Source: Brachybacterium kimchii (GTDB taxonomy: Bacteria > Actinomycetota > Actinomycetes > Actinomycetales > Dermabacteraceae). From it: a stretch of 64,000 nucleotides of DNA. The notes under the pieces are model-generated. The model did not search any database. It was given only the letters and a program-made list of their open reading frames with translations, and had not been told where the DNA came from. A program made the position numbers and the translations under genes. Numbering within the stretch: position 1 is the stretch's first letter; the number at the start of each line of letters is the position of its first letter. Shown one piece after another: positions 327-52,104 of the stretch. The stretch is from NCBI RefSeq assembly GCF_023373525.1, contig NZ_CP097218.1, positions 930,001-994,000 of the forward strand. The letters are read 5' to 3'.

Positions 327-354
327 AGTGGGCGAGCTCCGCGTGCGGTGGGAC
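327..354 (-). promoter_or_regulatory. Bipartite element GTCCC-N15-CGCCCACT
   Basis: On the minus strand GTCCC (354-350) is followed after 15 nt by CGCCCACT (334-327). The start codon of the next gene is 35 nt from the core. One of 17 such sites seen by eye. Confidence 0.7.
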
Positions 355-365
355 GAGAGGGCCCG

Positions 366-809
366 TCACGCGTCCCGTCCCAGCTGGCTGAGGATCTGAT
401 CGCGGCTGCGATGCAAGCGTGCGAGCTCGGCGATCCTGGAATCGGAAGGGAGGCGTTGCCGCAGGGGAGCGTTCTGTGCCGCTCGGTCCGCACCGTGCTC
501 GATCCCTCCGAAGAGAGGGTCGATCCTGCGGAGCTTCTGGTCGATCGCTTCGAGGCGAGCTTCCAGGCGCGGTCGGGCCTCCTCGCGCCGTCGCAGTGCC
601 TTGGTGCGAGCGGCCTCGTGCTCTTCCTGAGCCTTCGCGAGCCGGCGACTGGCGACCGTGGCGTGCCGAGAGCACAGCCAGGGCCGGGTGGACGCCTTCG
701 CGCACACCCGCTCGGCGGATTCGATCCACGCTGCGCACTGCGCGGGGTCACGGTCATCGATTCGAAGGGCGACCTGCAGGGCCAGGGTGCTTTCGTCGTG
801 ACTGCCCAT
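366..809 (-). CDS. Hypothetical coiled-coil-like protein, 147 aa
   Basis: Last gene of a tight three-gene minus-strand run (1283 to 366); its ATG lies 1 nt after the stop of the gene before it. The middle (about residues 50-95) is rich in Arg, Glu and Ala and looks helical, probably a coiled coil. No catalytic motif or membrane segment is visible. It is co-transcribed with two small genes under the CGCCCACT element at 1320-1327. Function unknown. Confidence 0.55.
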   Translation of the reverse strand: MGSHDESTLALQVALRIDDRDPAQCAAWIESAERVCAKASTRPWLCSRHATVASRRLAKAQEEHEAARTKALRRREEARPRLEARLEAIDQKLRRIDPLFGGIEHGADRAAQNAPLRQRLPSDSRIAELARLHRSRDQILSQLGRDA

Positions 810-810
810 G

Positions 811-1044
811 TCAGTGCTCCGTCTCGTAGTAGGTGCCCGGCTCGTCAGCCTCGCCGTAGATCTCTTCGGTCACGTGGGCCAGACCCGTCGTGTGCAGGAT
901 GTCCTGCGCCTCACGGCTCGCCTCATCAGCCCCGTCGCTGTGGTCCAGCACTGCGATCTGACCGGGGGTCAGGCGGTCGGTGTTGATCTCGACCGTCCGG
1001 GTGCGGAAGACGTACTCGGCCATGGTGTAGGTGCGGATGCTCAT
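811..1044 (-). CDS. Small hypothetical protein, 77 aa
   Basis: Second gene of the 1283-366 run. The ATG at 1044 has GAGGAG about 7 nt upstream, inside the end of the preceding gene, so the two are translationally coupled. The protein is acidic, without a membrane segment or recognised domain. A later ATG at 1023 is possible but lacks such a site. Function unknown. Confidence 0.6.
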   Translation of the reverse strand: MSIRTYTMAEYVFRTRTVEINTDRLTPGQIAVLDHSDGADEASREAQDILHTTGLAHVTEEIYGEADEPGTYYETEH

Positions 1045-1046
1045 GG

Positions 1047-1283
1047 TCAGTTCTCCTCGTCAGCGGAATCGGAGGGGTGGTTCTCCCCGAAAACGGTGCG
1101 CCAGACGTCTCGGGCGAAGCCTTCGAGTTCGCCGTCGATCACGGTCACCTCGTCGGTCTCGATGGTCAGCACGCGGTCATCGGTCTCCCACTCCTGGCAC
1201 GGGAAGTCGATGTTCTCGGCGAGCTCCCCCTTGGACAGAAGCTCCAACCGGGGGTTGCGATGGGTCTCAACATGGACGCTCAT
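1047..1283 (-). CDS. Small acidic hypothetical protein, 78 aa
   Basis: First gene of a minus-strand run of three. The ATG at 1283 follows GAGGAAGG and lies 37 nt downstream of the CGCCCACT core at 1320-1327. The sequence is strongly acidic at the C-terminus and soluble. No family recognised. Confidence 0.6.
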   Translation of the reverse strand: MSVHVETHRNPRLELLSKGELAENIDFPCQEWETDDRVLTIETDEVTVIDGELEGFARDVWRTVFGENHPSDSADEEN

Positions 1284-1319
1284 GGTCGGCCTTCCTCGTC
1301 TCGTGCGGTTCGAGGACTC

Positions 1320-1347
1320 AGTGGGCGCTGCGGCCGTTCGGCGGGAC
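1320..1347 (-). promoter_or_regulatory. Bipartite element GTCCC-N15-CGCCCACT
   Basis: Minus strand GTCCC at 1347-1343 and CGCCCACT at 1327-1320, spacer 15 nt. It heads the run of three small genes that starts at 1283. Confidence 0.7.
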
Positions 1348-1357
1348 GGCTACGAGC

Positions 1358-2365
1358 TCACCGAGGGGACGATGCCGGAAGTGCCCCCAGCGAGGCGGCC
1401 ACGCGCTCGCCCAGGAAGCGGGAGACGCGCACGGGCACAGCGTTGCCGATCTGCTTGACCACGTCGGATTGCGAGCCGTGGAAGCGGTAGGCGTCGGGGA
1501 ACCCCTGTGCTCGCGCCCGTTCGCGTGGGGTGAGCATGCGGAAGCGAGGGCCGGCGGCAGTGAAGGTCGCGATGCCATGGTGGTTGCCGCCGGCGGTGAC
1601 GGTCGCCAGTGGATGCTGATCTGCTCGGCGGGGGCGTGCGTTGCGGCGGTACATCACCAGGTGCGGGATGTCCTTCTCGGTGATCTGTTCGATCTGCGGG
1701 GTGACGTACAGGCGGCGGGTGACTGGCTTCCCGAGGTCCGGGTCGAGGATCCGGTCAGCGTGCCGGGGTGCGATCGATGGGGGAGTCAGGTCGACGCTGT
1801 CGCCCTGGGTGAAGACGCCGAACCAGCGGCGGCGGGATTGGGCCTCGCCGATGGTGGCCGCGTCGATCACGGTCTGCTGCACCTGGTAGCCCAGGTGTTG
1901 CATGCCGTCGAGCCACCAGGGGAACAGGCTCCAGTCGGTGAATTCGCGGACGTTCTCGACGACCACGGCCGGGTACCTGTGGACCTCGGCCGCGGCGATG
2001 ACGGCGAAGGCGGTTGCCCTGTCGATCGCTCCGGCGTCGGCCTTCAGCCGTTCCTGCTCGACGGGGGGCTTTCTTCTGCCGCCGGCGCGGGCGTGCCAGA
2101 CACACGAGGGCGATGCCCAGAGGAGGTCCGTGGAGGGGAAGGCGCGGAAGTCCGTCTCGGAGAGGTTCGCGAGGTGGTGCTGGGTCTTCGGATGGTTCGC
2201 CGCGTGAGTCTTCACCGCCGTCGGCCAGTGGTTCGCGGCGGCGAGGACCCGGTAGCCGGCCTGTTCGAGTCCCGCTGAGGATCCGCCGGCGCCGGCGAAG
2301 AGGTCGGTGGCAGTCAGGGTGTGAATGGGCACCGGGTCCTCGTGGTCCGTGGCAGGGTCGTTCAT
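1358..2365 (-). CDS. C5 cytosine-specific DNA methyltransferase (orphan)
   Basis: About 335 aa, the length of a single-domain C5 methyltransferase, which transfers methyl from SAM to cytosine C5. Visible motifs: SAM-binding DLFAGAGGSSAGLEQAG near the N-terminus; motif VI ENV in AVVVENV; motif VIII QSRRRWFGV; motif X QIGNAVPV near the end. The catalytic loop reads WASPSC in place of the usual GPPC, so the cysteine is present but preceded by Ser; I think related variants occur in phage-type enzymes. The ATG overlaps the stop of the upstream membrane-protein gene (ATGA), so the two are coupled. No cognate endonuclease is adjacent, so self-protection or anti-restriction is likely. Target sequence unknown. 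Confidence 0.9.
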   Translation of the reverse strand: MNDPATDHEDPVPIHTLTATDLFAGAGGSSAGLEQAGYRVLAAANHWPTAVKTHAANHPKTQHHLANLSETDFRAFPSTDLLWASPSCVWHARAGGRRKPPVEQERLKADAGAIDRATAFAVIAAAEVHRYPAVVVENVREFTDWSLFPWWLDGMQHLGYQVQQTVIDAATIGEAQSRRRWFGVFTQGDSVDLTPPSIAPRHADRILDPDLGKPVTRRLYVTPQIEQITEKDIPHLVMYRRNARPRRADQHPLATVTAGGNHHGIATFTAAGPRFRMLTPRERARAQGFPDAYRFHGSQSDVVKQIGNAVPVRVSRFLGERVAASLGALPASSPR

Positions 2366-2730
2366 CGCCGACTCCCGAGCCCGGGGACTACTGCGATGGC
2401 GATGATGAGGCCGGGGATGAGAAGGGCCAGTCCGACGAAGAACGCGAGGACCTTGGCCATGCCGGAGAGCCCGCCGTAGATCGCAAGGAAGTTCGCCCCG
2501 GTCAGCAGCAGCCCGCCGAGGGCGGTGATTCCTGCCGCGAGGGCGCTGACGACGTGGACTCTCGCGGTGTGCTGAGCGGCCTTGTCGGTGTCGGGCGCGG
2601 AACGGGCGAGGACGCGATCGAGCATCTGGATGAGGACGGCGCAGAGGACTCCTGCACCGAGGGGGAGGAAGGCGGTGACGATGTCGCCGACGCTGGGCAG
2701 ACCAGCGGACAGGTAGGGCTGGGTGTTCAT
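2362..2730 (-). CDS. Small membrane protein, 122 aa
   Basis: About three hydrophobic helices (roughly residues 14-38, 60-82 and 88-116) separated by a short charged stretch. First gene of a two-gene unit with the methyltransferase, overlapping it by 4 nt. The start at 2730 is 33 nt from the CGCCCACT core at 2763-2770. No family recognised; a holin-like or membrane-anchoring role would be a guess. Confidence 0.6.
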   Translation of the reverse strand: MNTQPYLSAGLPSVGDIVTAFLPLGAGVLCAVLIQMLDRVLARSAPDTDKAAQHTARVHVVSALAAGITALGGLLLTGANFLAIYGGLSGMAKVLAFFVGLALLIPGLIIAIAVVPGLGSRR

Positions 2731-2762: not shown

Positions 2763-2790
2763 AGTGGGCGAAGAGTCGCGGCCGCGGGAC
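2763..2790 (-). promoter_or_regulatory. Bipartite element GTCCC-N15-CGCCCACT
   Basis: Minus strand GTCCC at 2790-2786 and CGCCCACT at 2770-2763. It drives the membrane protein and methyltransferase pair. A plus-strand copy lies only about 50 bp away, so this is a divergent promoter pair. Confidence 0.7.
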
Positions 2791-2841: not shown

Positions 2842-2869
2842 GTCCTGCAGCAGGTTGCGATCGCCCACT
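2842..2869 (+). promoter_or_regulatory. Bipartite element GTCCT-N15-CGCCCACT
   Basis: Upstream half is GTCCT (2842-2846), core CGCCCACT at 2862-2869, spacer 15 nt, 45 nt before the GTG at 2914. Confidence 0.7.
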
Positions 2870-2913: not shown

Positions 2914-3207
2914 GTGAGCTCAAGGAATCTCGCTACGGAGTACGCGCAGCACACCGCCGGCGCTGACAACGTGTGCCTGATGATGGACCTGGTGAACACC
3001 GAGGCGCTCCAGCAGGTGGTGGCCAAGGCGTTCGAGCAGGGCCGTGCAGAGGAGCGACGTCAGCTGTCCGCTGCGACGCGGGACCGTGCGGAGCTCAAGC
3101 AGCGCCTGGTCGATCGCCTCCACAGAGGTGGCTTCGGCACGTACACCTACGAGTCGGTCGAGGTGGAGGACGTGGCCGAGGACATGCTCGACGAGCTGGG
3201 GCTGTGA
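2914..3207 (+). CDS. Hypothetical protein, 97 aa
   Basis: GTG start chosen because GGAGGAGG lies about 7 nt upstream and the CGCCCACT element is 45 nt upstream. The protein is helical and charged, with heptad-like Leu/Ala spacing around residues 20-65, and ends in an acidic tail. It heads a run of three genes (2914-4121). No family recognised. Confidence 0.6.
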   Translation: MSSRNLATEYAQHTAGADNVCLMMDLVNTEALQQVVAKAFEQGRAEERRQLSAATRDRAELKQRLVDRLHRGGFGTYTYESVEVEDVAEDMLDELGL

Positions 3208-4577: not shown

Positions 4578-4605
4578 GTCCCGCGAGACGCCCCGTCCGC
4601 CCACT
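4578..4605 (+). promoter_or_regulatory. Bipartite element GTCCC-N15-CGCCCACT
   Basis: GTCCC 4578-4582 and CGCCCACT 4598-4605, spacer 15 nt, 38 nt before the ATG at 4643. Confidence 0.7.
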
Positions 4606-4642: not shown

Positions 4643-5188
4643 ATGAGCACCGCAACGCACGGCGAGGCGACCACCAGCGCGGACGTGGAGCGCTACGACC
4701 CCTGGGAGACGTACTGGGAGGTGTGGAAGCTCCGCGACGGCAAGCTCGCCAGCACCGGGCGAGAGCACGCGACCGAGGCACAGGCCCGTGCCGTGGCAGA
4801 CGGGCTCACAAGCACCGAGACCGAGGTGCACAAGGTCGAGCGTGTACGCCGCGATCCGATCCCGGAGCGGTTGCGAGTCGGCTGGAGCACGATCGAGACG
4901 TGCTTCCACGAGCACGCCGCCGACATGACGAAGGACGACCTCGCGCGCGGGCTCGGCACGGAGTTCCCTCCGGAGTTCGCCGACTGGGCGGTCGGGATGC
5001 TCGCCGCCCGCGACTGGCGCGAACGCCACGACGCCCAGGTCCGCGAGGCCGCTGCCCGGGAGGCGCTCGAAGGCCTCTCGGCGTGGCTCGCGAAGGTCGC
5101 TGCTGCTCACCCCGAGCGGAGCGCGCACATCCCGATGATGCGAGCCCACATCGACCGATACCTCGCCGACAACCATCCGAAGGACTGA
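4643..5188 (+). CDS. Hypothetical protein, 181 aa
   Basis: The ATG at 4643 follows GAGGAGACGTGG and lies 38 nt after the CGCCCACT core. Soluble, Trp-rich near the N-terminus (YDPWETYWEVWK) and helical afterwards. First gene of a unit that continues through 5193-5477 and 5474-5704. No family recognised. Confidence 0.65.
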   Translation: MSTATHGEATTSADVERYDPWETYWEVWKLRDGKLASTGREHATEAQARAVADGLTSTETEVHKVERVRRDPIPERLRVGWSTIETCFHEHAADMTKDDLARGLGTEFPPEFADWAVGMLAARDWRERHDAQVREAAAREALEGLSAWLAKVAAAHPERSAHIPMMRAHIDRYLADNHPKD

Positions 5189-6372: not shown

Positions 6373-6380
6373 CGCCCACT
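6373..6380 (+). promoter_or_regulatory. CGCCCACT core element
   Basis: The core is perfect and lies 35 nt before the ATG at 6415, but I see no GTCCC at the expected upstream position. Confidence 0.6.
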
Positions 6381-6414: not shown

Positions 6415-7653
6415 ATGCACACGGCCAGGCCACTGCCCGCCCCCGTCCTGATCGGCGTCCTCCTCGCCGCGGCCAGCATCGGAGCAGTGGTCGCAGGGCA
6501 CTTCTTGGGCCCTGCCGTCGCACCCGCCGCCGGGCTTCTGGCTGCCGTCCCCTTGTGCATCCGCGAGCTGGCGGTGCTGTCGAGCCTCCCGGAGCCCACC
6601 GCTGTCGAGGTGCGGAGACCGCAGGGGGTCGACCTGCCGGAGCCCGTGCGCGAGCGCACCGTGGCCCAGGTGCCCACCCGGACCCTTGCTGCGACCCATC
6701 CCGACTCCCGCACGGTCGAACAGCTGCGCCGCGTGCGCCAGACCTTGCGGGAGGGCACCACAGCGGATCGCGTCGCCGCCACCGACCACCTCATGGCCAA
6801 GGGGTCTGTGGATCCGGTTCACCTCGAGCACGTGCGCCGTTCCCGCCGCCTCCGTCTGATGCTCCTCGTGGTGCTCGCCGCCGGTGTCGTGACCATCGCC
6901 AGCATGCTCCTCGCGTGGGCACCGCTGGCGGCAGCCCTCATCGCCGCGGCACTGGGCTGCGCGCTCACGGCAGGGGTCGTGGCCCGCCCGGATACGACCA
7001 TCCCTCCCTCGCGCGTCGCCGAGGTTCCCGACGCGGGGTTCACACCCTTCCACGAGCACGGGTGCGTCGGCGGCAATCTGGCGGACGCGAAGGCCTTCGG
7101 AGGGGCCGAGGCTGTCGGGGTCGCGGGGGAGAAGCGCACCGCTGAACTGCTGGAGACCTGGCTCGACGGGATCAGCAGGGTCGCCATTTTGCACTCGCTG
7201 CGCTTCCCCGGGTCGGAGCGCGCCGACATCGACCACGTCGTCATGATCGGGCACCGCGTGTTCATCATCGACTCGAAGGCATGGAAGGGAGGCACGTACC
7301 GTCAGGTCTCAGCGGAGACGGTGCTGACCCAGGACGGGACAGTAAGAGCGAGCGCGATGCCTGCCGCAGCGGAAGCGCTGGGACAGATGGGGTGGGGTGA
7401 TGTCCAGGTCCTCACGGTCATCCACGCCACCAGTGGAATCGTCGCCGTGCCGCACAGCAGGGACCCGGGGAACACGCTCTTGGCGCCGGTGGATCTTGTG
7501 CAGCTGCTGCTGGAAGCGAGGGTCCAGGAGCAGCGGACCCCGTGGTCAACTGAGGACGCCGCCGCGTTCCAGGTCCGCCTGGGCAGGCTGCGCCGCATGC
7601 TCGTCACCGGGGCCACGTCCCATCGCCGCGTGTTCGCCGATCGCGCGGCCTGA
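6415..7653 (+). CDS. Membrane-anchored NERD-domain protein, 412 aa
   Basis: N-terminal half has two pairs of hydrophobic helices (about 12-48 and 145-188). The C-terminal half (about 235-360) matches the nuclease-related (NERD) domain: GEKRTAELLETWL, then ADIDHVVMIGHRVFIIDSK, where the D-x-D-H and the later D-S-K are the putative active-site residues. NERD domains are related to restriction-type nucleases and usually sit in DNA-processing or membrane-linked proteins. It heads a unit with the gene at 7673 and is 35 nt from the CGCCCACT core. Cutting activity is inference. Confidence 0.75.
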   Translation: MHTARPLPAPVLIGVLLAAASIGAVVAGHFLGPAVAPAAGLLAAVPLCIRELAVLSSLPEPTAVEVRRPQGVDLPEPVRERTVAQVPTRTLAATHPDSRTVEQLRRVRQTLREGTTADRVAATDHLMAKGSVDPVHLEHVRRSRRLRLMLLVVLAAGVVTIASMLLAWAPLAAALIAAALGCALTAGVVARPDTTIPPSRVAEVPDAGFTPFHEHGCVGGNLADAKAFGGAEAVGVAGEKRTAELLETWLDGISRVAILHSLRFPGSERADIDHVVMIGHRVFIIDSKAWKGGTYRQVSAETVLTQDGTVRASAMPAAAEALGQMGWGDVQVLTVIHATSGIVAVPHSRDPGNTLLAPVDLVQLLLEARVQEQRTPWSTEDAAAFQVRLGRLRRMLVTGATSHRRVFADRAA

Positions 7654-8240: not shown

Positions 8241-8267
8241 GTCCTGTGACAGTCTCTCCCGCCCACT
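8241..8267 (+). promoter_or_regulatory. Bipartite element GTCCT-N14-CGCCCACT
   Basis: GTCCT 8241-8245, core 8260-8267; spacer one base shorter than usual. It lies 34 nt before the ATG at 8301. Confidence 0.6.
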
Positions 8268-9505: not shown

Positions 9506-9533
9506 GTCCCGTGAGACTCATCGGTCGCCCACT
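9506..9533 (+). promoter_or_regulatory. Bipartite element GTCCC-N15-CGCCCACT, close to start
   Basis: GTCCC 9506-9510 and core 9526-9533. The ATG at 9542 is only 9 nt downstream, the distance expected if transcription begins at or near the start codon (leaderless or almost so). Confidence 0.7.
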
Positions 9534-9541: not shown

Positions 9542-10309
9542 ATGAGCAACAAGAAGCAGCACCCCCGGCTCGCTCGCACCAGGACCCTCTTGCTGCTGGC
9601 CGGAGGCATCGTCGTGCTGTTCCTGCTGTACACGCATCATCGCGCCGAGGTGCACGAGGTCATCGAAAGGATCCGCGAGGGCCTGCCTGCACCGGCTCGA
9701 GCCGAGGAGGTGCAGCACTCCGAGTGGCTGGATGCGGGGCCCGCGGTCATCGACCCGCAGGAGCTCGCCGGTCTGGATGTCGAGCGTCAGGACCGGTCTG
9801 CCGATGACTATGAGCGCTCCGCCTTCGGCGCCCGCTGGGCCGATGTCGACGGGAACTCGTGCGACACGAGGTCGGACATTCTCGCTCGTGATCTCGTCGA
9901 TGTGACCTATGAGGACGGCTCCCACTGCGAGGTCTCGGCCGGGACGCTGCACGACCCGTACACCGGGAAGACCATCGGCGGGGACCTCAGCAAGACGGTC
10001 CAGATCGACCACGTCGTGTCCCTGGGGTCTGCCTGGTATTCCGGGGCCAGCGGGTGGAGCGCGGAGAAGCGGGAGAGGTTCGCCAACGACCCCGCGAATC
10101 TCGTGGCCGTGGACGCCTCGACGAACATGTCCAAGAGCGACGACTCCATCTCCGAGTGGTATGGGGCGTGGGATGCACCGAGTGATCGAGCCCAGTGTCG
10201 CTACGCTGCCCAGTACGTCCACGTCGTCGCCACCTACGAGCTCTCCGTCACCCGTGACGACTACGCGCTGCTGAAGAGCCTCGAGACCAGCTGCAAGGAC
10301 CGCGCATGA
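9542..10309 (+). CDS. Exported or membrane-anchored HNH-family nuclease, 255 aa
   Basis: An N-terminal basic stretch and hydrophobic helix (about 12-34) form an uncleaved anchor or signal peptide. The C-terminal part matches the GmrSD-C/DUF1524-type HNH family: QIDHVVSLGSAW, then the FANDPANLVAVDASTNMSKSD segment containing the N residues of the betabetaalpha fold. Cysteines at DGNSCDT and SHCEV could form a disulfide outside the cell. This family often appears as secreted nucleases in actinobacteria. Its role in the element could be DNA degradation outside the membrane or processing of incoming DNA. Confidence 0.8.
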   Translation: MSNKKQHPRLARTRTLLLLAGGIVVLFLLYTHHRAEVHEVIERIREGLPAPARAEEVQHSEWLDAGPAVIDPQELAGLDVERQDRSADDYERSAFGARWADVDGNSCDTRSDILARDLVDVTYEDGSHCEVSAGTLHDPYTGKTIGGDLSKTVQIDHVVSLGSAWYSGASGWSAEKRERFANDPANLVAVDASTNMSKSDDSISEWYGAWDAPSDRAQCRYAAQYVHVVATYELSVTRDDYALLKSLETSCKDRA

Positions 10310-11094: not shown

Positions 11095-11102
11095 CGCCCA
11101 CT
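11095..11102 (+). promoter_or_regulatory. CGCCCACT core element
   Basis: Perfect core, 32 nt before the ATG at 11134; no clear GTCCC upstream, where the end of the previous gene lies. Confidence 0.55.
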
Positions 11103-11133: not shown

Positions 11134-11700
11134 ATGGGCACAGCGATCACCCGCAAGAAGGACACCGGCGAGCAGGGCAACGGCGGCCAGTTCGGATCCG
11201 TCACCCGCAGCGACGCCAACGTACAGGTCCCGCAGCAGAAGGATGCCGGCAGCTTCGAGGACCGCTACAAGTCGCTGATGGCGGAGTCCAACGAAGCCTT
11301 CCGTGCGTACGAAAGCCTGTCCGTGCGGGTCAACGAGATGGTCCTCGAGAAGCTCAGTCGCATCGGCGTGGAGAGCGCGCCCGAGGAAGCCGTCGCGGTC
11401 GGGATCGCCGCCGAGTACGACGACGATCCTGAACGACCTGAGGACTCTCTCCGAGGGCTGCGATGGGTGCACAGCGACGGCAGCGTCGCGGACGTCGAAG
11501 ACTCCGGCTGCTGGGACGAGATGCAGGTTACCTGGGGCGACGTCGATCGCAGCATGATCCCGTGGCACGAACACGCAGGTCTGATCGAGCCGGCAGACAG
11601 CGGCCTGCCCACCGAGGCTATGAAGCTCGAAGAGGTCGAGTACGTGATCCCCATCCACGGGAGGGCCCACGGCATGGTCGAACCCGCCGCCTGGAGCTGA
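11134..11700 (+). CDS. N-tag protein, 188 aa
   Basis: ATG at 11134 after AGGAGGGG. Begins with the shared tag (KKDTGEQGNGGQFG, then R-x-DANV), followed by a helical stretch (about 40-75) and an acidic C-terminal domain of unknown fold. Second of three genes carrying this tag. No known family. Confidence 0.6.
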   Translation: MGTAITRKKDTGEQGNGGQFGSVTRSDANVQVPQQKDAGSFEDRYKSLMAESNEAFRAYESLSVRVNEMVLEKLSRIGVESAPEEAVAVGIAAEYDDDPERPEDSLRGLRWVHSDGSVADVEDSGCWDEMQVTWGDVDRSMIPWHEHAGLIEPADSGLPTEAMKLEEVEYVIPIHGRAHGMVEPAAWS

Positions 11701-11726
11701 CCCGCCACACCTCGGTTCCGCCCACT
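11699..11726 (+). promoter_or_regulatory. Bipartite element GACCC-N15-CGCCCACT
   Basis: Upstream half GACCC at 11699-11703 overlaps the previous stop codon; core 11719-11726; 39 nt before the ATG at 11765. Confidence 0.6.
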
Positions 11727-13138: not shown

Positions 13139-13167
13139 GTCCCGTGGAACGGCCGCACTCGCCCACT
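13139..13167 (+). promoter_or_regulatory. Bipartite element GTCCC-N16-CGCCCACT
   Basis: GTCCC 13139-13143 and core 13160-13167, spacer 16; 32 nt before the ATG at 13199. Confidence 0.65.
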
Positions 13168-14899: not shown

Positions 14900-14927
14900 G
14901 TCCCGCGGGACGACCCGCACGCCCACT
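14900..14927 (+). promoter_or_regulatory. Bipartite element GTCCC-N15-CGCCCACT, close to start
   Basis: GTCCC 14900-14904, core 14920-14927; the ATG at 14936 is 9 nt after the core, as at 9542, again fitting a leaderless transcript. Confidence 0.7.
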
Positions 14928-15789: not shown

Positions 15790-15797
15790 CGCCCACT
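15790..15797 (+). promoter_or_regulatory. CGCCCACT core element
   Basis: Perfect core with an imperfect TGCCC 14 nt upstream. The next credible start (15871) is 74 nt away, the longest leader of the set. Confidence 0.5.
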
Positions 15798-18570: not shown

Positions 18571-19209
18571 ATGCCTGCCAGATCGCCACACCCGTTTAGT
18601 CTCGTGACCTGGGACGACGGCCACGAAGGTCCGCCCGATGGCGGTCGCGGCACCGGCAAGGTCGTGCGTATGCGGCGTGGCAAGCATCGTGAATCACTTT
18701 CGGACAAAGGTGCCATCCCTGGTCCCAAAGTACTATTCCGGCATACCTCTCGCCGACGCGATAACCCGGACTCCGCTCATCGCCAATTCGGGTTCGAGTG
18801 GCCCGACGACCTCACCGTCGAGTCACTCGGTCGGAACATTGGCACCGCAGTCGGGCTGCGCGTGGAGCTCGGCCCGATCCCCGAAGAGGTGCGTCACCGC
18901 GAGATCAGCGGCCTGACCGTCATGATCGACGCCACCGCGCACGTGTACTTCGACGCCGAGCTGTCGCCGCTGAACCGCGAGCAGACGATCCTGCACGAGT
19001 ACGCGCACATCCTGCACCGCGATGTGCGGGCGCACAGCGATGCGACGCACCTGAGGTGCGTGTTCGATGACCCCATCGAGAAGAGGGCAGAGACGACGGG
19101 CATGCGACTTCTCGATGAGTTGCACCGCCGCCGCCAGGAGCGCGACAGCCGCGGAGCCTCCGAGGTCCTCGCGTTCTTCTCCGGGAACGACGCTCGGAGG
19201 GCTTCCTGA
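18571..19209 (+). CDS. ImmA/IrrE-like metallopeptidase, 212 aa
   Basis: Carries the zinc motif HEYAH in TILHEYAHILHRD (about residue 145), the signature of ImmA/IrrE-type peptidases that cleave XRE repressors. The N-terminal third is basic and unrelated to the core. ATG at 18571 has GAGG 8 nt upstream; ATG at 18565 is too close. Its stop overlaps the next ATG (TGATG). An XRE gene lies two genes downstream, the classic pairing of ImmR/ImmA-like switches. Cleavage of that repressor is inference. Confidence 0.75.
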   Translation: MPARSPHPFSLVTWDDGHEGPPDGGRGTGKVVRMRRGKHRESLSDKGAIPGPKVLFRHTSRRRDNPDSAHRQFGFEWPDDLTVESLGRNIGTAVGLRVELGPIPEEVRHREISGLTVMIDATAHVYFDAELSPLNREQTILHEYAHILHRDVRAHSDATHLRCVFDDPIEKRAETTGMRLLDELHRRRQERDSRGASEVLAFFSGNDARRAS

Positions 19210-21053: not shown

Positions 21054-21458
21054 GTGTCGATCGCTCAACTGCTCGAAGACCTGTTCGCCCGCACCGCTGG
21101 CCCGGGTGGGCGTCCAGTGACGATGCAGGAGATCATTCGCAGGATGGAGAGGGGCGGCATCGCAACGATGTCGCTGAGCTACCTCCAGCAGTTGCGGAAG
21201 GGTGAGGCGAAGAATCCACGTCTGCAGCACCTGCGCGCCTTGGCTGACGCGTTTGACGTGCCCCCTTCGTACTTCACGGCCGAGGATTCCCCCTCCTTCG
21301 AGGCGGCATCCCAGCTGAACCCCGAGGAGCGGGAGATCGCTCTGCGCATGCACGGGCTGAGCGATGAAGCTCTGGCGAACGTGCGCGGCATCGTGGAGAT
21401 GGCGCGAAGGAGCGAGAGGCTGGACAGCCCGTCGGCCCACCGCCCTGACGCCGACTAG
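21054..21458 (+). CDS. XRE-family transcriptional regulator, 134 aa
   Basis: Helix-turn-helix at about residues 22-65: TMQEIIRRMERGGIATMSLSYLQQLRKGEAKNPRLQHLRALADAFDVPPSYF, with the PRLQHLRALADAF helix typical of the family. The C-terminal half is helical and could hold the site cut by the ImmA-like protein. The GTG start has AGAGAGG upstream. The gene sits between two copies of TGGAA-N4-TTCCA, its likely binding site. Confidence 0.8.
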   Translation: MSIAQLLEDLFARTAGPGGRPVTMQEIIRRMERGGIATMSLSYLQQLRKGEAKNPRLQHLRALADAFDVPPSYFTAEDSPSFEAASQLNPEEREIALRMHGLSDEALANVRGIVEMARRSERLDSPSAHRPDAD

Positions 21459-21523: not shown

Positions 21524-21831
21524 CGGGTGTGCGATGCTGGAGGTGTTCGGCGCGGACGCGACCAACGGGTCGCACCAAGACCGCGCTCCTGACTGCAAGG
21601 GAGCGATCACCCGATGCACAACTGCTTCGACCACGAGCACCCTCACGGCACCGCCAGCGCCGTCCATCGCAGTTCGGGCTCCACACGGATGCCGGTCGCT
21701 GAGACCCCTTCGGACGGCAGGGACCACTGATGGCCCTGGAACTCGCAGCCGCGGCGCCCACCAGTAGGGCTCGCCACCAGCCCGCATGCGAGTGCGATCG
21801 CGACACCCTCCAGGCTCCATGGAAGGTCGAG

Positions 21832-22719
21832 ATGTGCGCGGTTCTCCATGCAGGAAGCCACGCTCAGTCGCGAGAGCTGCTCGACAGTTTCATCCGCGAG
21901 CACCACAAGGAGATCTCGCGGATCCTGCACCGCGCCAAGCGCACCGCCCACCTCGACGACGAGGGCGACAGCCTGATGTTCTCCTACTTCGGCCAGGCCC
22001 TCCTCCACATGGTCGACCAGCGGTGGCGCGCCAAGAACGGCGGCCCCGGCACCAGCCAGGTCTTCAACTACTCGCGGAACCTCCCCATGCTCCTCGAGGC
22101 CGAGACTCGAGCAGCACTCCGCGAAGACAGGCGCAAGGGAATGCTCAACGACAGCACCGGCGTCCCCGGCGCCGGAGCACACGACCGCCGGACATCCCTC
22201 GTCGAGAAGTCCCGCCAGCTGTACGAGCTCGAGCGCGAGACCGCGCCCAGCGACGACGAGCTCGTGGCCTTCCACAACGAGCGCATGCGGGCCACGCGTC
22301 GGGATGCCGCACGGCAGTCGGTCCTCATCACAAAGCAGGACCTGCGCCGTTCAGAACCCGTCGCACTGGACGACCCAAACGCGTCCAGCGAACCGGCGCT
22401 GCTGACTCAGGACACCCCCGATCCCGGGGCCAGTGAACGCGAGAAGAGGATCATTCGCATCGTCCGTCGTTGCCAGCAGCTCGATCGGGAACGGGAAGCT
22501 GCGCGGGCGCGCAGGATGAACCGAGAGCCTCTGCTGCTGGCGGACGTCGCCCGCGCCTACTTCGCACACCACCGCGAGGGGATCTACCCCACGCGCAACG
22601 ACCTCGTACGGCAGCTCGGCGCCGAGAAATCGGCCGCCCGCCGCGAGCTCGGTTCGCACCTGCGCACGGTGCTGGAGATGGCACGTGCAGCCTTCGCGGA
22701 CTACCGGCAGCCGAACTGA
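21832..22719 (+). CDS. Divergent sigma-70-like protein, 295 aa
   Basis: ATG at 21832 has GGAAGG 5 nt upstream; ATG at 21730 has no ribosome binding site. A helical region-2-like domain (about 12-65) is followed by a segment resembling sigma-70 region 3: RAALREDRRKGML, PSDDELVAFHNERM, RQSVLITKQDL, VALDDPN. The end (about 235-290) holds a region-4-like helix-turn-helix (YPTRNDLVRQLGAEKSAARREL). I believe proteins of this shape occur on actinobacterial plasmids and phages as degenerate sigma factors. It is my candidate for the factor recognising the GTCCC/CGCCCACT promoters. Alternative: a DNA-binding protein with no polymerase contact. Confidence 0.6.
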   Translation: MCAVLHAGSHAQSRELLDSFIREHHKEISRILHRAKRTAHLDDEGDSLMFSYFGQALLHMVDQRWRAKNGGPGTSQVFNYSRNLPMLLEAETRAALREDRRKGMLNDSTGVPGAGAHDRRTSLVEKSRQLYELERETAPSDDELVAFHNERMRATRRDAARQSVLITKQDLRRSEPVALDDPNASSEPALLTQDTPDPGASEREKRIIRIVRRCQQLDREREAARARRMNREPLLLADVARAYFAHHREGIYPTRNDLVRQLGAEKSAARRELGSHLRTVLEMARAAFADYRQPN

Positions 22720-22726: not shown

Positions 22727-22754
22727 GTCCCACAGGAGTCGCCGTCCGCCCACT
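22727..22754 (+). promoter_or_regulatory. Bipartite element GTCCC-N15-CGCCCACT
   Basis: GTCCC 22727-22731 and core 22747-22754, directly after the sigma-like gene; 44 nt before the ATG at 22798. Confidence 0.7.
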
Positions 22755-26314: not shown

Positions 26315-27502
26315 ATGATCGACGCGCTCGCGGCCGTGCACCGGGCATTCCGCTCGGAGTACGGCCGCACTGTCGCGATCCTGATGCGCAGTATCGGCGA
26401 CCTCGACGCCGCCGAAGATGCGGTACAGGACGCGTTCACGGCAGCCGCCGACGTCTGGCCCGCCCAGGGCGTTCCCCCGAACCCGCAGGCATGGATCGTC
26501 ACGACCGCGCGTCGTCGCGCGATCGACCGCATCCGACGCACGCAGACGGAGCAGCGGTACGCCCCGCATATCGCGCGACCATCTGTCGCCGCGCCGGAGG
26601 GGACCGGCGACGACGAGCTGCGCATGATCCTGCTGTGCGCCCATCCGAGCCTGTCGCCAGAAACACAAGTCGCACTGACTCTGCGTTACGTCGGCGGACT
26701 CACGGCGACAGAGATCGCGCGGGCATTCGGCTCAACAGAAGCGACGATCGCGCAGCGGCTCTCGCGCGCGAAGCGGAAGATCAAAGACGCCCGGATCGAC
26801 TTGCCCGGGTCGGGACGCATCCACGACCAGCTCGGCGTCGTGCTCGCCGTGATCTATGCGATCTACAACGAGGGCTACGTCACCACGTCCGGGCCGCTCA
26901 GCCGCTTCGACCTCAGCCAGGAAGGAGTCCGGCTGGCGAGACTCGTGGTCGCCCACTCGAAAGGCGCGCTCGAAGCCAAGGGACTCCTGGCGCTTCTCGT
27001 GCTGCTCCAGGCCCGCCGTCCGGCCCGTATCGCGGGCAATGGCAGCCTGATCCCGTTGCCTGAACAAGACCGACGGCTGTGGGACCGTGACATGATCGCC
27101 GAGGGACAGACCCTCGTGCGTGAGTGCCTCACCGCCGACAAGCCCGGCCAGTATCAGTTGCAGGCCGCGATCCAAGCCGTACACTGCGACGCCTCACGAG
27201 ACGCGGACACCGACTGGCGGCAGATCCTCGCGCTGTACGACATGCTCCTGCCGCTCGTCCCTACCGCAGCAGTGCGCACAGCCCGGATCGTGGCACTCTC
27301 CCACGTCGAGAGCGTCGAAACAGCACTGGAACAGATCGCCCCAGAATCAGGCGACCACTATGAGCTCGCGGTGCGCGCCGACCTTCTCGCCAGACTCGGC
27401 GACGCGGCCAATGCCCGAGTGGCATTCCAACGCGCTGCGAGCATCGCGGAGAACACTGCAGAAAGGACTCACCTCCTCCGACGCGCAGACGAGCTCACGT
27501 GA
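26315..27502 (+). CDS. ECF42-type RNA polymerase sigma factor with C-terminal extension, 395 aa
   Basis: Region 2 (about 8-75): RSEYGRTVAILMRSIGDLDAAEDAVQDAF and NPQAWIVTTARRRAIDRIRR. Region 4 (about 120-165): LSPETQVALTLRYVGGLTATEIARAFGSTEATIAQRLSRAKRKI. The remaining about 220 residues are the helical, TPR-like extension of this ECF class, needed for activity in studied members. Pairing with the DGPF protein confirms the class. No anti-sigma gene is present, as usual for this group. Confidence 0.9.
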   Translation: MIDALAAVHRAFRSEYGRTVAILMRSIGDLDAAEDAVQDAFTAAADVWPAQGVPPNPQAWIVTTARRRAIDRIRRTQTEQRYAPHIARPSVAAPEGTGDDELRMILLCAHPSLSPETQVALTLRYVGGLTATEIARAFGSTEATIAQRLSRAKRKIKDARIDLPGSGRIHDQLGVVLAVIYAIYNEGYVTTSGPLSRFDLSQEGVRLARLVVAHSKGALEAKGLLALLVLLQARRPARIAGNGSLIPLPEQDRRLWDRDMIAEGQTLVRECLTADKPGQYQLQAAIQAVHCDASRDADTDWRQILALYDMLLPLVPTAAVRTARIVALSHVESVETALEQIAPESGDHYELAVRADLLARLGDAANARVAFQRAASIAENTAERTHLLRRADELT

Positions 27503-32655: not shown

Positions 32656-32679
32656 CGTTCGGCTCAGCCCGCAGCATGC

Positions 32680-33677: not shown

Positions 33678-33695
33678 CATCGTCAATCGACGATG
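33678..33695 (-). promoter_or_regulatory. Operator-like palindrome upstream of the CDF gene
   Basis: CATCGTC-AATC-GACGATG, a 7-bp perfect inverted repeat with 4-bp gap, about 60 nt before the CDF start; a further CATCGTC half-site lies close by. Placed for the ArsR repressor. Confidence 0.5.
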
Positions 33696-33699
33696 CTAG

Positions 33700-34790: not shown

Positions 34791-34842
34791 GATGGTGGTG
34801 CCTTTCGGTCTTGAGGGGATCAGTTGTGCGTGCGGCCGTTGG

Positions 34843-37110: not shown

Positions 37111-37148
37111 TGCCCGCCCCTTCCTGTCGTGATCCGTCCGCGGCCTGG

Positions 37149-48313: not shown

Positions 48314-48640
48314 ATGAGGAGCGTGGCAGCACCGAGGAAGTACCCGGACGAGCTTCGGGAGCGGGCCACGAGGATGGCCGTGGAAGCGCGACTGGATCCA
48401 GCGACGAGGTTGGGAACGTTTCGTCGCGTGGGCGAGCAGCTCGGGATCCATCCCGACACGTTGCGGAACTGGGTCCGGCAGGCCGAGATCGACCAGGGGC
48501 ACCGACCCGGGATCACGACCAGTGAGTCCGAGCGGCTCGCTGAACTGGAGGAGGAAGTGCGCGAGCTGCGCCGGGCCAACGCGATCCTGCGGTCGGCCTC
48601 GGCTTTTTTCGCAGCGGAGCTCGACCGCCCACCGCGCTGA
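48314..48640 (+). CDS. IS3-family OrfA, 108 aa
   Basis: Helix-turn-helix (RRVGEQLGIHPDTLRNWVRQAEID) and leucine zipper (LAELEEEVRELRRANAILRSAS). A TTTTTTC run near 48603-48611 is a candidate -1 slippery site for making the OrfAB fusion transposase. Confidence 0.88.
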   Translation: MRSVAAPRKYPDELRERATRMAVEARLDPATRLGTFRRVGEQLGIHPDTLRNWVRQAEIDQGHRPGITTSESERLAELEEEVRELRRANAILRSASAFFAAELDRPPR

Positions 48641-48642
48641 TC

Positions 48643-49569
48643 GTGGAGTTCATCGACCGGCACAAGCACGAGTTCGGCGTCGAGCCGATCTGTCGCACGC
48701 TCACCGTGGCGGGCACGCAGATCGCGCCGAGCACGTACTACGCCTTCAAGACCCGCCCGCCCTCGAAGCGGGCACTGCGCGACGAGGAACTGCTGGTCGA
48801 GATCCGCCGAGTCCACTCGGCGAACTTCGGCGTCTACGGGGCGAAGAAGCTGCACGCCCAGCTACGCCGGGAAGGGATCGAGATCGCGCGTTGCACGGTC
48901 GAGAGGCTCATGCGTTCCGCGGGGTTGCGTGGCATCAGTCGTGCGAAGGGGCCACGCACTACGATCCCCGGTCGCGGACCGGATTCTCGTCCTTACCTGG
49001 TCGCGCGGGACTTCACGGCGACAGCTCCGAACCAGTTGTGGGTCGCGGACATCACCTACTGCCGGACGTTCGCGGGGTGGGCGTATGCCGCGTTCGTCAT
49101 CGATGTGTTCTCTCGCCGCGTCGTGGGGTGGCAGCTGTCGAAGTCGCTGCGGACCGACCTCGCGCTCGACGCGCTGGAGATGGGGATCGGGACCCGCGAG
49201 CACGCAGGCCAGGCCGCTACTGGACTCAAGCACCACAGCGACAGAGGCGTTCAATATGTCGCCATCCGCTACACCCAGCGGCTCGCCGAAGCCGGCGCCG
49301 TCGCCTCGGTCGGCTCGACAGACGACTCCTACGACAACGCACTGGCCGAGACATTCAATTCGCTCTACAAGGCCGAGCTGGCCCGTAACCACGGTCCCTG
49401 GACGGGCATCGACGACCTCGAGATCGCGGCCGCGGAGTACATCGACTGGTTCAACCACCGACGGCTCCACGGCGAGATCAGTATGATCCCGCCCGTTGAG
49501 TTCGAGGACATCTACCATCACCACCAGACCGTGCCGGCGACCGCCGAAGCGGCACTTGCGAGCCTCTAA
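48643..49569 (+). CDS. IS3-family OrfB (DDE integrase), 308 aa
   Basis: Complete rve integrase: NQLWVADITYCRTF (D), GLKHHSDRGVQYV (D), DDSYDNALAETFNSLYK (E), and the C-terminal YIDWFNHRRLHGEI block. Normally expressed as an OrfAB fusion. Appears intact, so the element may be active. Confidence 0.92.
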   Translation: MEFIDRHKHEFGVEPICRTLTVAGTQIAPSTYYAFKTRPPSKRALRDEELLVEIRRVHSANFGVYGAKKLHAQLRREGIEIARCTVERLMRSAGLRGISRAKGPRTTIPGRGPDSRPYLVARDFTATAPNQLWVADITYCRTFAGWAYAAFVIDVFSRRVVGWQLSKSLRTDLALDALEMGIGTREHAGQAATGLKHHSDRGVQYVAIRYTQRLAEAGAVASVGSTDDSYDNALAETFNSLYKAELARNHGPWTGIDDLEIAAAEYIDWFNHRRLHGEISMIPPVEFEDIYHHHQTVPATAEAALASL

Positions 49570-49782: not shown

Positions 49783-51084
49783 TCACAGCAGGATCGCCAT
49801 GGCCTGCAGCGCCTGGCTGCGGAACAGGGTGTTCGGCTTGTCGAGGTGCGCGCCGGCCACGGAGCCCATCTCGTCGATGACCTGCGTGAGTGAACCGAAG
49901 GTGACCCCGTCCACCGTCGCCGCACGGGGCTGCGAGGAGACCATGCGCGTGGGGATCACGTAGCCCCGCACCTTGCCCGTCCGTCCGAACCGGGACTCGA
50001 GCGCCCGCATCTCGTCGCGCACCACGTTCCGATACACGCTCCCGTCCGCGATGAGGTCTGACCCCGCGATCTCCATACCGTCGGCGCCGATGGAGGGGAT
50101 CGCCACCAAGTGCAGGGTGCGCCCGATCACTACCGCCACCTGAGACCGCACCGGGGAGGCGTCACGATGCGGGGTCACGCGGTCCGGCAGGAGGATCACA
50201 CGGACGCCTTCGCGCTGGCCGAACGCACCGACGAGCGCGCCCAGGAGCCGATCGATGTCCGCCGGTCGCTCACCCAGAGAAGTCGCGCCGGCCTGCGTGA
50301 TGAACGACGAGCGCATGATCTTGTCCCCGTCGGTGCGCCCGGACCGCGACAGCGCGATCACGAAGGACAGCCGCGTGGTGAGTGCGCTCGCGACCAGGCA
50401 CAGCGGACTCCCAAGCATCGGCAGCGGTGTGCCTGCGTCCCGGTAGATCACCGCGGCCGCGGCGCCCGCGAGCACGAGCGTAGAGATGACGCCCCAGCGC
50501 GAGTGAAGCGCACGGAAGAACACGAGCGCCGACCACACGAGATGGATGCCGGCTCCGACCGCCAGCGCCGGCACGACATCGAGGATCCCCACCCGCGCGA
50601 GGGGGAGCCCGATCGTTCGCGCCGCGGCGGCGCCCGCGAGCACCCACGCAAGGAACCCGAGCGCGAGCAGCACGCGTCGCACGATGTGGGGTGACCGTCG
50701 GAGGCGCGACCGGGCCGGTGCCTGGTCGTCTGGTGCGGTGTACCAGGACCCCCACGCGGTGGGGTCCGCGGTCATCATCGACACGTCCGGCACGTCGCGG
50801 TCGGGGCGGAAGACCTTCCGGCGGCCGCGAGTCGGCTCCGATGAGGGCGGAGGTGTCGGGGCGCTCGCACTGGAGGACCGCTCGTAGAAGAGGGTGCGGT
50901 CGTACTTCGCGCGCCGCTCCGCGTTCGACAGCACATTGAACGCTGAGCTCACCTGCTTCGCGAGCTCATCATTGCCGCCGGCGTCACCGTGCAGCGCTCT
51001 CATCTGCGCCCGGAAGGCCGCAGTGATCTCAGACCGAGAAGCGTCGGGGGCGACGCCGAGCAGTTCGTAGTGCGTGATGGCCAT
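49783..51084 (-). CDS. J-domain membrane protein with altered HPD motif, 433 aa
   Basis: N-terminal J domain (about 3-65): HYELLGVAPDASRSEITAAFRAQMRALHGDAGGND...AFNVLSNAERRAKYDRTL. The invariant HPD tripeptide reads HGD, so stimulation of Hsp70 is doubtful. A Pro/Ser linker follows, then four hydrophobic helices (about 135-240) and a C-terminal cytosolic alpha/beta domain of unknown kind. ATG 51084 is 35 nt from the CGCCCACT core. First minus-strand unit of the backbone after the mosaic. Confidence 0.75.
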   Translation of the reverse strand: MAITHYELLGVAPDASRSEITAAFRAQMRALHGDAGGNDELAKQVSSAFNVLSNAERRAKYDRTLFYERSSSASAPTPPPSSEPTRGRRKVFRPDRDVPDVSMMTADPTAWGSWYTAPDDQAPARSRLRRSPHIVRRVLLALGFLAWVLAGAAAARTIGLPLARVGILDVVPALAVGAGIHLVWSALVFFRALHSRWGVISTLVLAGAAAAVIYRDAGTPLPMLGSPLCLVASALTTRLSFVIALSRSGRTDGDKIMRSSFITQAGATSLGERPADIDRLLGALVGAFGQREGVRVILLPDRVTPHRDASPVRSQVAVVIGRTLHLVAIPSIGADGMEIAGSDLIADGSVYRNVVRDEMRALESRFGRTGKVRGYVIPTRMVSSQPRAATVDGVTFGSLTQVIDEMGSVAGAHLDKPNTLFRSQALQAMAILL

Positions 51085-51118: not shown

Positions 51119-51146
51119 AGTGGGCGGGCAGGCGCTGCCGCGGGCC
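51119..51146 (-). promoter_or_regulatory. Bipartite element GGCCC-N15-CGCCCACT
   Basis: Minus strand GGCCC (51146-51142) and CGCCCACT (51126-51119), 35 nt before the J-domain gene. Confidence 0.65.
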
Positions 51147-51148
51147 GT

Positions 51149-51382
51149 TCAGGCGAACGGGCGGATCCGCGTGGCGTCGGCGAGCATGCAGGATGCGATT
51201 CGCATCGCGTCTCCTGTGGCCTGGGGCCCGACGGCGATGATCCCTGCCCACATGGCGACGACGAGGGTGCAGGGTCCGCCGTTGCCCCTGATGCTCGGAT
51301 CCCCAGACTCGACGAGTTCCTGGAGATGGTGTCGGATATTCAAGAGGTCTCGGGAGAGGACAGCCTCGGTCAGAGCACGCAT
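51149..51382 (-). CDS. Small hypothetical protein, 77 aa
   Basis: ATG at 51382 lies 39 nt after a perfect bipartite promoter element and follows GGAAGG. Helical N-terminus and one moderately hydrophobic stretch (CTLVVAMWAGIIAVG). Function unknown. The promoter element is the main support that this frame is real. Confidence 0.55.
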   Translation of the reverse strand: MRALTEAVLSRDLLNIRHHLQELVESGDPSIRGNGGPCTLVVAMWAGIIAVGPQATGDAMRIASCMLADATRIRPFA

Positions 51383-51420
51383 TGCAGGGCCTTCCGCAGG
51401 GGTGGACGCTCACCCTCTCC

Positions 51421-51448
51421 AGTGGGCGGGAAGGCTCTTTTGCGGGAC
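51421..51448 (-). promoter_or_regulatory. Bipartite element GTCCC-N15-CGCCCACT
   Basis: Minus strand GTCCC (51448-51444) and CGCCCACT (51428-51421). Confidence 0.7.
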
Positions 51449-51544
51449 ATTCTGCGCACCGTGACCAGCATCGATGTATTCGAATTGGTCGTTTCGGGTA
51501 GGCTTCCAATGTCGTCGGCGGATGGGGCCATGACAGGGTATGCA

Positions 51545-51579
51545 CGAAACCCCAGGGAGATGATCTCCCTGGGGTTTCG
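51545..51579 (-). terminator. Terminator hairpin
   Basis: A perfect 16-bp inverted repeat with a 3-nt loop just downstream of the repeat-protein gene that ends at 51597. Confidence 0.75.
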
Positions 51580-51596
51580 CCTTTGCCGGAGGAGCC

Positions 51597-52031
51597 CTAC
51601 GCCGCGAATGCGGGGAGTGCTCCGAGGCGAGCATCGACCTGTTCGACGGCGCCGCGCGGCGCGTTCGGATGCGACGCCAGGTAGCGGAGGGTCGACTCCG
51701 ATGCGGCGGGGGCCGAGGTGACGTGGTAGATCGCGTTGCGGTCGCTGAGGCGGCGGGCGATCCGGTCGATGAACTCGGCCGAGAGGTCGGTGCGGCGCGT
51801 GACGGGGTAGGTGAGCCACCGCTCGTCGACGTCGATGAGGTACTCGAGGGTGTGCTCGGCGGTCGCCGGGTTGTGCGCGATCTTCCGCAGGACGCCGAGC
51901 GGGGCGCGGCTGCGCGCGAGTCCGTCCAGGATCTCGGGGTCGTCGCTGAACTCGGCGGCGGCGTGCACGCGGTGTGCGGTGGAGGGATCCTCGAGCAGCG
52001 AGAGGTCTGCGTCGGCGGCGAGGTGAGCCAT
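51597..52031 (-). CDS. LRV/HEAT-like helical repeat protein, 144 aa
   Basis: ATG at 52031 has GAAGGGA 6 nt upstream; ATGs at 52037 and 52046 are alternatives. Short helical repeats carry L-x-x-x-A-x-N/H-P-x-x-x-x-x-T-L (LRKIAHNPATAEHTLEYL, LRYLASHPNAPRGAVEQV), as in variant leucine-rich repeat proteins. Such repeats bind proteins or nucleic acid. Preceded by the bipartite element. Confidence 0.6.
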   Translation of the reverse strand: MAHLAADADLSLLEDPSTAHRVHAAAEFSDDPEILDGLARSRAPLGVLRKIAHNPATAEHTLEYLIDVDERWLTYPVTRRTDLSAEFIDRIARRLSDRNAIYHVTSAPAASESTLRYLASHPNAPRGAVEQVDARLGALPAFAA

Positions 52032-52076
52032 GGCCATTCCCTTCATGAGAGCCCCGGTCTCTCCGGGTATCTCTCC

Positions 52077-52104
52077 AGTGGGCGGAAGGGCCTCGTGGTG
52101 GGAC
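52077..52104 (-). promoter_or_regulatory. Bipartite element GTCCC-N15-CGCCCACT
   Basis: Minus strand GTCCC (52104-52100) and CGCCCACT (52084-52077), 46 nt before the ATG at 52031. Confidence 0.7.

What the first reader, a model, noticed from the sequence alone, without database searches (positions are those of the whole stretch)
327..52104. A private promoter class: GTCCC-N15-CGCCCACT before at least 17 genes
Seen directly: the octamer CGCCCACT occurs upstream of genes on both strands at 327, 1320, 2763, 51119, 51421 and 52077 (minus) and 2862, 4598, 6373, 8260, 9526, 11095, 11719, 13160, 14920, 15790 and 22747 (plus), always in the sense of the gene. In 11 to 13 cases GTCCC or GTCCT sits 14-16 nt upstream. 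The core is mostly 32-46 nt from the start codon, or 9 nt in two genes that would then be leaderless. I saw none in the metal/IS mosaic or in the chromosomal part. Inference: a -35/-10 pair read by a dedicated sigma factor or activator, marking one regulon spread over about 50 kb.
Basis: partly seen in the sequence, partly recalled or inferred. Interest (0 to 1): 0.93.

Follow-up and report, generated by a model that had tools for sequence, protein, structure and literature searches.

The report
Mobile element's private promoter language
A roughly 160-kb stretch of a Brachybacterium genome, likely a mobile element, carries the same unusual DNA signal in front of dozens of its own genes and hardly anywhere else in the genome; the signal is likely a private promoter read by the element's own, very divergent predicted sigma factors, and related elements and megaplasmids in other genera carry different signals of similar layout.

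Summary
Observation confirmed and larger than reported. CGCCCACT occurs 18 times in the window (3.8 expected). In the 4.35-Mb genome 41 of 47 GTCCY-N13-17-CGCCCACT sites lie in one 160-kb stretch; the window holds its last third. In eight pieces of related elements, 118 of 186 upstream cores have GTCCY exactly 15 nt before them. Start codons pile up 8-9 nt after the core (leaderless-type genes), as expected if it fixes the transcription start. There are two classes, with GTCCC (A) and without (B). The likely reader is in the element: two copies of a 'hypothetical' protein (window 21730-22719; genome 816709-817695). The 50 PDB matches listed for its AlphaFold model are sigma factors; two Arthrobacter relatives exceed Pfam's Sigma70_r3 cut-off. 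In the genus, 7 of 8 genomes with the gene have 5 or more sites, 0 of 30 without. Relatives in other genera carry this protein and other private words (CGCATAGG, CGCACATC, CCGCACAC, CGCGCATA), mostly with the same start spacing; orthologous genes keep their class (13 of 13 plasmid genes, 7 gene families, labels given after looking). Sigma activity and transcription starts are inferred; nothing was measured. Closest known: plasmid sigma SigN of pBS32.

The parts
327..354 (-). class A promoter-like site (GTCCC-N15-CGCCCACT), 34 nt before the ORF that starts at window 292 (-) (genome 929465-930292)
1320..1347 (-). class A site, 36 nt before ORF 1047-1283 (-)
2763..2790 (-). class A site, 32 nt before ORF 2362-2730 (-), upstream of C5 DNA methylase 1358-2365
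2842..2869 (+). class A site (GTCCT), 44 nt before ORF 2914-3207
4578..4605 (+). class A site, 37 nt before ORF 4643-5188
6373..6380 (+). class B core (no GTCCY), 34 nt before NERD-domain ORF 6415-7653
8241..8267 (+). GTCCT-N14-core, 33 nt before ORF 8301-9485 (N-terminal KRDTGE-type tag)
9506..9533 (+). class A site, 8 nt before ATG of GmrSD_C ORF 9542-10309 (leaderless if the core fixes the start; orthologs in E2, E3, E4 have 9 nt)
11095..11102 (+). class B core, 31 nt before ORF 11134-11700
11699..11726 (+). near-class-A site (GACCC), 38 nt before hexapeptide-repeat ORF 11765-13135
13139..13167 (+). GTCCC-N16-core, 31 nt before ORF 13199-14881 (PcfJ match below cut-off)
14900..14927 (+). 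class A site, 8 nt before ATG of DUF7455 ORF 14936-15220 (leaderless-type; orthologs in E1a and E2 also 8 nt, in E4 39 nt)
15790..15797 (+). class B core, 73 nt before ORF 15871-16488
18862..19209 (+). ORF with an HEYAH motif, read by eye as ImmA/IrrE-like (no NCBIfam match); possible partner of the HTH regulator
   Evidence: inference
21144..21458 (+). Cro/C1-type HTH regulator (HTH_3 22.8 bits, cut-off 23) next to the sigma-like gene
21730..22719 (+). sigma-like protein, right copy (329 aa): proposed reader of the private promoters
22727..22754 (+). class A site, 43 nt before ORF 22798-23052, followed by metallophosphoesterase ORF 23052-23543
51119..51146 (-). near-class-A site (GGCCC), 34 nt before DnaJ-domain ORF 49783-51084 (-)
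51421..51448 (-). class A site, 38 nt before ORF 51149-51382 (-)
52077..52104 (-). class A site, 30 nt before ORF 51597-52046 (-)
26950..26957 (+). core inside ECF-sigma ORF 26315-27502, no GTCCY: judged a chance hit, not part of the system

Best explanation
The CGCCCACT sites are likely promoters of a roughly 160-kb, likely mobile element, predicted to be read by two very divergent sigma-70-like proteins that the element itself encodes. Shown: the bipartite motif, its orientation, spacing, confinement and start-codon pile-up, and the presence in the element of two copies of a protein family whose predicted fold is that of sigma factors. Inferred: the protein replaces host sigma on core RNA polymerase, contacts GTCCC as the -35 (class A) and CGCCCACT (or its last six bases) as the -10, and starts transcription about 8-10 nt after the core, so that genes with ATG there are leaderless. 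Also inferred: the left sigma operon is started from a different, AT-richer leaderless-type promoter (CTTGAT..GGCATATA-N6-ATG, conserved in the four elements looked at), by host sigma or by the factor itself, and the right copy is under a Cro-like repressor; either would switch on the element's replication genes (DnaE, SSB, primase, NrdI) and others as one programme. In relatives the factor and the promoter core would have diverged together, giving lineages their own promoter words.
Confidence: 0.77

Rival explanations
1. Host RNA polymerase with its own sigma reads these promoters with the help of an element-encoded activator that binds GTCCC(GCGAGA) and/or the core.
For: GTCCCGCGGGAC is palindromic in the 14900 site and near-palindromic in others; the element has other DNA-binding proteins, e.g. 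a multi-HTH protein (P0001) and a Cro-like regulator; class B has the core without GTCCC.
Against: The core has no TAnnnT-like -10; the start codon is tied to the core; among the pieces compared P0001 has relatives only in E2 and E5, whereas the sigma-like gene is in all seven genomes with at least five sites.
Confidence: 0.14
2. The octamer is an RNA- or translation-level signal (5' UTR element) rather than a promoter.
For: Most cores lie 27-64 nt before start codons.
Against: In leaderless-type genes only 8-9 nt remain; an upstream partner sits at a fixed 15 nt; Rfam finds nothing at these sites in window 1-54000 (only an ALIL element at 48601-48729).
Confidence: 0.03
3. The sites are operators of an element-wide repressor or of a nucleoid or partition protein, placed near genes.
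For: Many dispersed sites on one replicon are typical of such systems (recalled).
Against: Orientation to the gene and the 8-9-nt start pile-up; relatives have other words at the same distance.
Confidence: 0.05
4. Chance or compositional artefact of GC-rich intergenic DNA.
For: The single-mismatch count is at chance level (103 against 99.5).
Against: Exact-core enrichment, letter-permutation controls and genome-wide confinement.
Confidence: 0.01

Closest known systems
SigN (ZpdN) of Bacillus subtilis plasmid pBS32 (PMC6751061, passages read; PMC10601692, search listing only)
   Same: A divergent sigma factor carried by a mobile replicon, with promoters on that replicon; its authors found no SigN promoters in the chromosome.
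   Different: SigN activity was shown in vitro and by Rend-seq, its listed promoters are AT-rich, it is LexA-repressed and self-activating. Here the sites are GC-rich, many are leaderless-type, 63 upstream cores lie in one element, there are two classes and relatives use other words; activity is only predicted.
34-bp plasmid-specific motif over the -10 of 19 promoters of Bifidobacterium breve megaplasmid pMP7017 (PMC10832533, passages read)
   Same: A motif confined to a family of actinobacterial megaplasmids with a tRNA array; the VirB4-like protein of our element matches the 190,178-bp B. breve plasmid NZ_KM406416, which I take to be pMP7017.
   Different: That motif overlaps a standard TATACT -10 and was read as a transcription-factor site; the sigma-like queries do not hit that record at E 0.01.
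Phage sigma factors with late promoters (T4 gp55, SPO1 gp28; recalled, no call)
   Same: A mobile element redirects host RNA polymerase to its own promoters.
   Different: Here the carriers are large integrated elements or megaplasmids; one query (L057) found nothing in 50,697 phage records.
Host ECF/sigma-70 regulons of actinobacteria (recalled)
   Same: -35/-10-like bipartite promoters with fixed spacing; leaderless genes common.
   Different: CGCCCACT is not a -10 that I know of; as a whole word it occurs in none of the papers searched.

Membership tests
sigma-70 family | sigma2-sigma3-sigma4 fold | tested here: met
sigma-70 family | sequence match to sigma-70 region models above the curated cut-off | tested here: inconclusive
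   Window protein none; of 7 relatives scanned, three of them chosen for a precomputed hit, P0083 (26.7) and P0108 (27.8 bits) exceed the Sigma70_r3 cut-off 25.3; L057 relative below it.
sigma-70 family | binds core RNA polymerase and directs initiation at a -35/-10 promoter | not testable with these tools
   Only indirect: motif geometry and co-occurrence.
mobile-replicon sigma with replicon-wide regulon (SigN type) | candidate promoters confined to the replicon | tested here: met
   41 of 47 genomic sites in the element.
mobile-replicon sigma with replicon-wide regulon (SigN type) | autoactivation from its own promoter class | tested here: inconclusive
   No CGCCCACT before either Brachybacterium copy; in F1 and Curtobacterium the ParA-sigma gene cluster does begin with the CGCATAGG word enriched there.
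mobile-replicon sigma with replicon-wide regulon (SigN type) | sequence homology to SigN | not tested
   SigN was not fetched.
pMP7017 megaplasmid motif regulon | motif overlapping a canonical TATAAT-like -10 | tested here: not met
   Core is CGCCCACT with no TAnnnT in the alignments.
T4SS-type integrative conjugative element or conjugative megaplasmid | VirB4-like ATPase, recombinase or plasmid state, relaxase, transfer | tested here: inconclusive
   VirB4-like AAA_10; ORF 814392 is the reciprocal best hit of an annotated tyrosine recombinase; related circular megaplasmids exist but all are typed non-mobilizable by PLSDB; no relaxase identified; transfer not tested.

The most novel reading that the evidence does not exclude
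A whole clade of large Micrococcales elements and megaplasmids (about 40-600 kb) runs on its own sigma factor, invisible to domain libraries in many members, and its lineages have evolved their own promoter words: two promoter programmes (replication set and accessory set) are kept gene by gene while the -10-like words drift (CGCATAG and CCGCACAC in Micrococcaceae plasmids, CGCCCACT for both in Brachybacterium, CGCACATC in another genus). Element genes would be silent for the host and for rival elements unless the cognate factor is present.
Probability: 0.45. Interest if true: 0.94.

Novelty: new variant of a known kind. Interest (0 to 1): 0.87.

Why it matters
If true, it gives a new sigma-70 branch carried by large mobile elements, a natural series of sigma-promoter pairs that have diverged in parallel (material for the question how sigma and promoter co-evolve, and for orthogonal gene expression in GC-rich actinobacteria), and a simple way to find such elements: the private octamer. 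It would also explain how a 160-600-kb element can stay transcriptionally separate from its host.

Tried and rejected
Canonical sigma in the element: the only Sigma70_r2 match of the own genome inside it is the ECF ORF at window 26315, in the metal/IS mosaic; rejected as reader because it has no ortholog among the other element pieces (it is absent from the list) and the mosaic has no upstream site. A sigma-70/helicase fusion on pACHL01 (matches MzaA of an anti-phage system) has no counterpart in the element; not followed. Multi-HTH protein P0001: relatives only in E2 and E5. One paralog per class: not supported; a tree separates left and right copies only with weak support (one search read one strand only and is void; one search failed for L053). 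Degenerate scan with one mismatch: chance. F5 (G227), fetched for a weak hit (E 6e-4, one of the 12 matches), proved not to be a related element and served as chromosomal control. F3/F4: five genes each carry a GCATAG/GCATAT-type word, but they are orthologs of each other, so not counted. The class-level sample (394 genomes) matched only the own genome. Literature: searches showed no account of this motif or of such a factor in these elements; that is the whole basis of the novelty statement. PMC10832533, PMC6751061 and PMC7478629 were read as passages only; others seen as listings.

Limits: genes were called by my own simple codon-usage caller, which favours ribosome-binding sites and so works against leaderless starts. 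Cores with no called gene within 160 nt and not deep in a gene were dropped from the 186 + 34. The mixture fit assumes fixed spacing, so the N14 and N16 sites at 8241 and 13139 fell into its class B. One search used the presence of a GTCC-like box for Brachybacterium and of GCATAG or CGCACA/GCACAC within about 130 nt for the plasmids, dropped pairs with no word on either side, and left Curtobacterium out; labels were matched after looking, the two plasmids are related, and Fisher is 0.0014 by gene and 0.048 by family. The largest permutation counts (12 in E0, 49 in F2) I take to be shifted copies of the cores.
Full report
OBSERVATION. Eighteen against 3.8 expected; with GTCCY 10-20 nt upstream, 12 against 0.13. 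The window is G000:C1:930001-994000 of a 4.35-Mb genome; where names relatives they are Brachybacterium. Over the whole genome 41 of 47 GTCCY-N13-17-CGCCCACT sites lie between 822,095 and 982,104 (p 1e-52). I fetched the rest of that stretch. The 182-kb piece holds 63 upstream cores of 79 and genes for a VirB4-like AAA_10 protein, DUF3854 (primase-like), PDDEXK, SSB, ribonucleotide reductase with NrdI, MmeI, methylases and a phage-lysozyme-like protein, and an array of 38 predicted tRNA genes.

RELATED ELEMENTS. With the stricter pattern GTCCYRYS-N12-CGCCCACT, 38 genomes of the genus were scanned: five or more sites occur in G020 (47), G000 (34), G037 (20), G023 (19), G009 (7), G030 (7) and G036 (5); G025 has 4, the rest 0-2; the reversed control gives 0-2 per genome. 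I fetched stretches of G020 (two clusters of sites on one contig, one on another; E1a, E1b, E2), G023 (E3), G037 (E4), G025 (E5), G036 (E6) and G009. They share a gene core with the window's element.

ANATOMY. Of the exact cores in the eight pieces E0-E6, 186 lie within 160 nt upstream of a called gene and not deep in another, and 34 deep inside genes. GTCCY sits at exactly N15 in 118 of the 186, at N14 in 1 and N16 in 1. A two-component fit separates class A (125 sites; C-GTCCC-RY-S-A-G-A, N8, core, G) from class B (61; no GTCCC at that place, CCC before the core, T-n-C after it). In class A the start codon lies at 8 nt in 14 and 9 nt in 9 sites, then mostly at 27-64; ATG occurs 29 times at offsets 8 and 9 together and 1.3 times on average at the other 24 offsets. 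The primase gene keeps 9 nt in E0, E1b, E3, E4 and E6; the gene of window 9542 has 8 or 9 nt in E0, E2, E3 and E4. This is the signature of a box that fixes the transcription start. Among 335 other permutations of the core's letters the mean upstream count is 4.0 (core: 177) and the largest 39.

OTHER LINEAGES, OTHER WORDS. In the elements of G294 (F1) and G296 (F2), word counts upstream of genes give CGCATAGG (13 upstream of 14) and CGCACATC (29 of 37), with starts at 7-8 nt in 8 of 13 and 8-9 nt in 19 of 29. On 100-kb stretches of pACHL01, the A. caoxuetaonis plasmid and Curtobacterium D40 the words are CCGCACAC (32 of 41; 33 of 47) and CGCGCATA (14 of 19), with starts at 8-10 nt in 11 of 32, 10 of 33 and 2 of 14. 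Letter-permutation means are 0.2-0.6 upstream. In the cross-table CGCCCACT, CGCACATC and CGCGCATA are each enriched in one element only and CCGCACAC in the two Micrococcaceae plasmids, while CGCATAGG is shared by F1, pACHL01 and Curtobacterium; a 140-kb chromosomal control has none. The two Micrococcaceae plasmids have a second class, CACCCGTC..CGCATAG[AG], before the ParA-like gene that begins the sigma cluster, and before primase, PDDEXK, dnaE and ssb. Reciprocal best hits between Brachybacterium elements and these plasmids: all 13 plasmid genes with a word on both sides have the matching class (9 A-A, 4 B-B; 7 gene families: primase, PDDEXK, NrdI, DnaE, SSB against glutaredoxin and the 839892 family). 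Labels were matched after looking and the plasmids are related, so this is supporting, not decisive.

CONTROL OF THE FACTOR. Before the ParA-like gene of the left sigma cluster, E0, E1b, E3 and E4 share CTTGAT..GGCATATA-N6-ATG although flanks differ; a GCATAG word stands 6-8 nt before that start in pACHL01, A. caoxuetaonis, Curtobacterium and F1, a variant (GCCATAGG) in F2, none was seen in F3/F4. The right copy lies next to, or divergent from, a Cro-like gene; in E2, E3 and E4 GCATCTA-type words, repeated in E2, lie between. A bootstrap promoter and a repressor switch are plausible; both are inference.

WHAT IS KNOWN. SigN of pBS32 is a plasmid sigma with a regulon on its plasmid (PMC6751061): the same principle, proven there. 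pMP7017 has a plasmid-specific motif over standard -10 boxes (PMC10832533). No paper found holds CGCCCACT, and the searches show no such factor in these elements. I therefore call it a new variant of a known kind.

Noticed in passing
L003:16194 to L004:5335 (genome about 868.2-877.3 kb): Array of 38 predicted tRNA genes inside the element, comparable with tRNA arrays reported in mycobacterial elements (PMC5966550, listing).
   Followed up: no
window 8301, 11134, 11765; at least 15 called proteins of the element: Otherwise different proteins share an N-terminal tag like KIRKRDTGExGNxGxFGxxxRxxAxV, two of them hexapeptide-repeat proteins; may be a targeting or transfer signal.
   Followed up: no
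window 25955-27502: YCII-like ORF (by eye) followed by an ECF-sigma ORF with C-terminal extension (ECF42-like by recall) in the metal/IS mosaic.
   Followed up: partly
window 29416-37990: Metal-handling block (heavy-metal P-type ATPase-like, cation diffusion-like and ArsR-like ORFs, by eye), with relatives in E3 and E4 and transposase-like genes nearby.
   Followed up: no
window 48601-48729: Rfam ALIL pseudoknot (RF01497, 64.2 bits), known by recall from IS3-family transposases.
   Followed up: no
L118:27249-30221 (pACHL01): 990-aa protein with an N-terminal part matching a phosphorothioation restriction model and a C-terminal primary-sigma part, similar to MzaA of an anti-phage system.
   Followed up: no
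E2 992047 and 992092, E3 705214, E4 2491605 (genome coordinates of G020 C2, G023, G037): GCATCTACAGAT-like words between the Cro-like gene and the right sigma-like gene, possible operators.
   Followed up: partly
L121:24736-25113 (Curtobacterium D40): A WhiB-family gene lies in the same-strand cluster as the sigma-like gene.
   Followed up: no
L121:39657-39758: PLSDB labels a 102-base stretch as a resistance gene; far too short, probably spurious.
   Followed up: no
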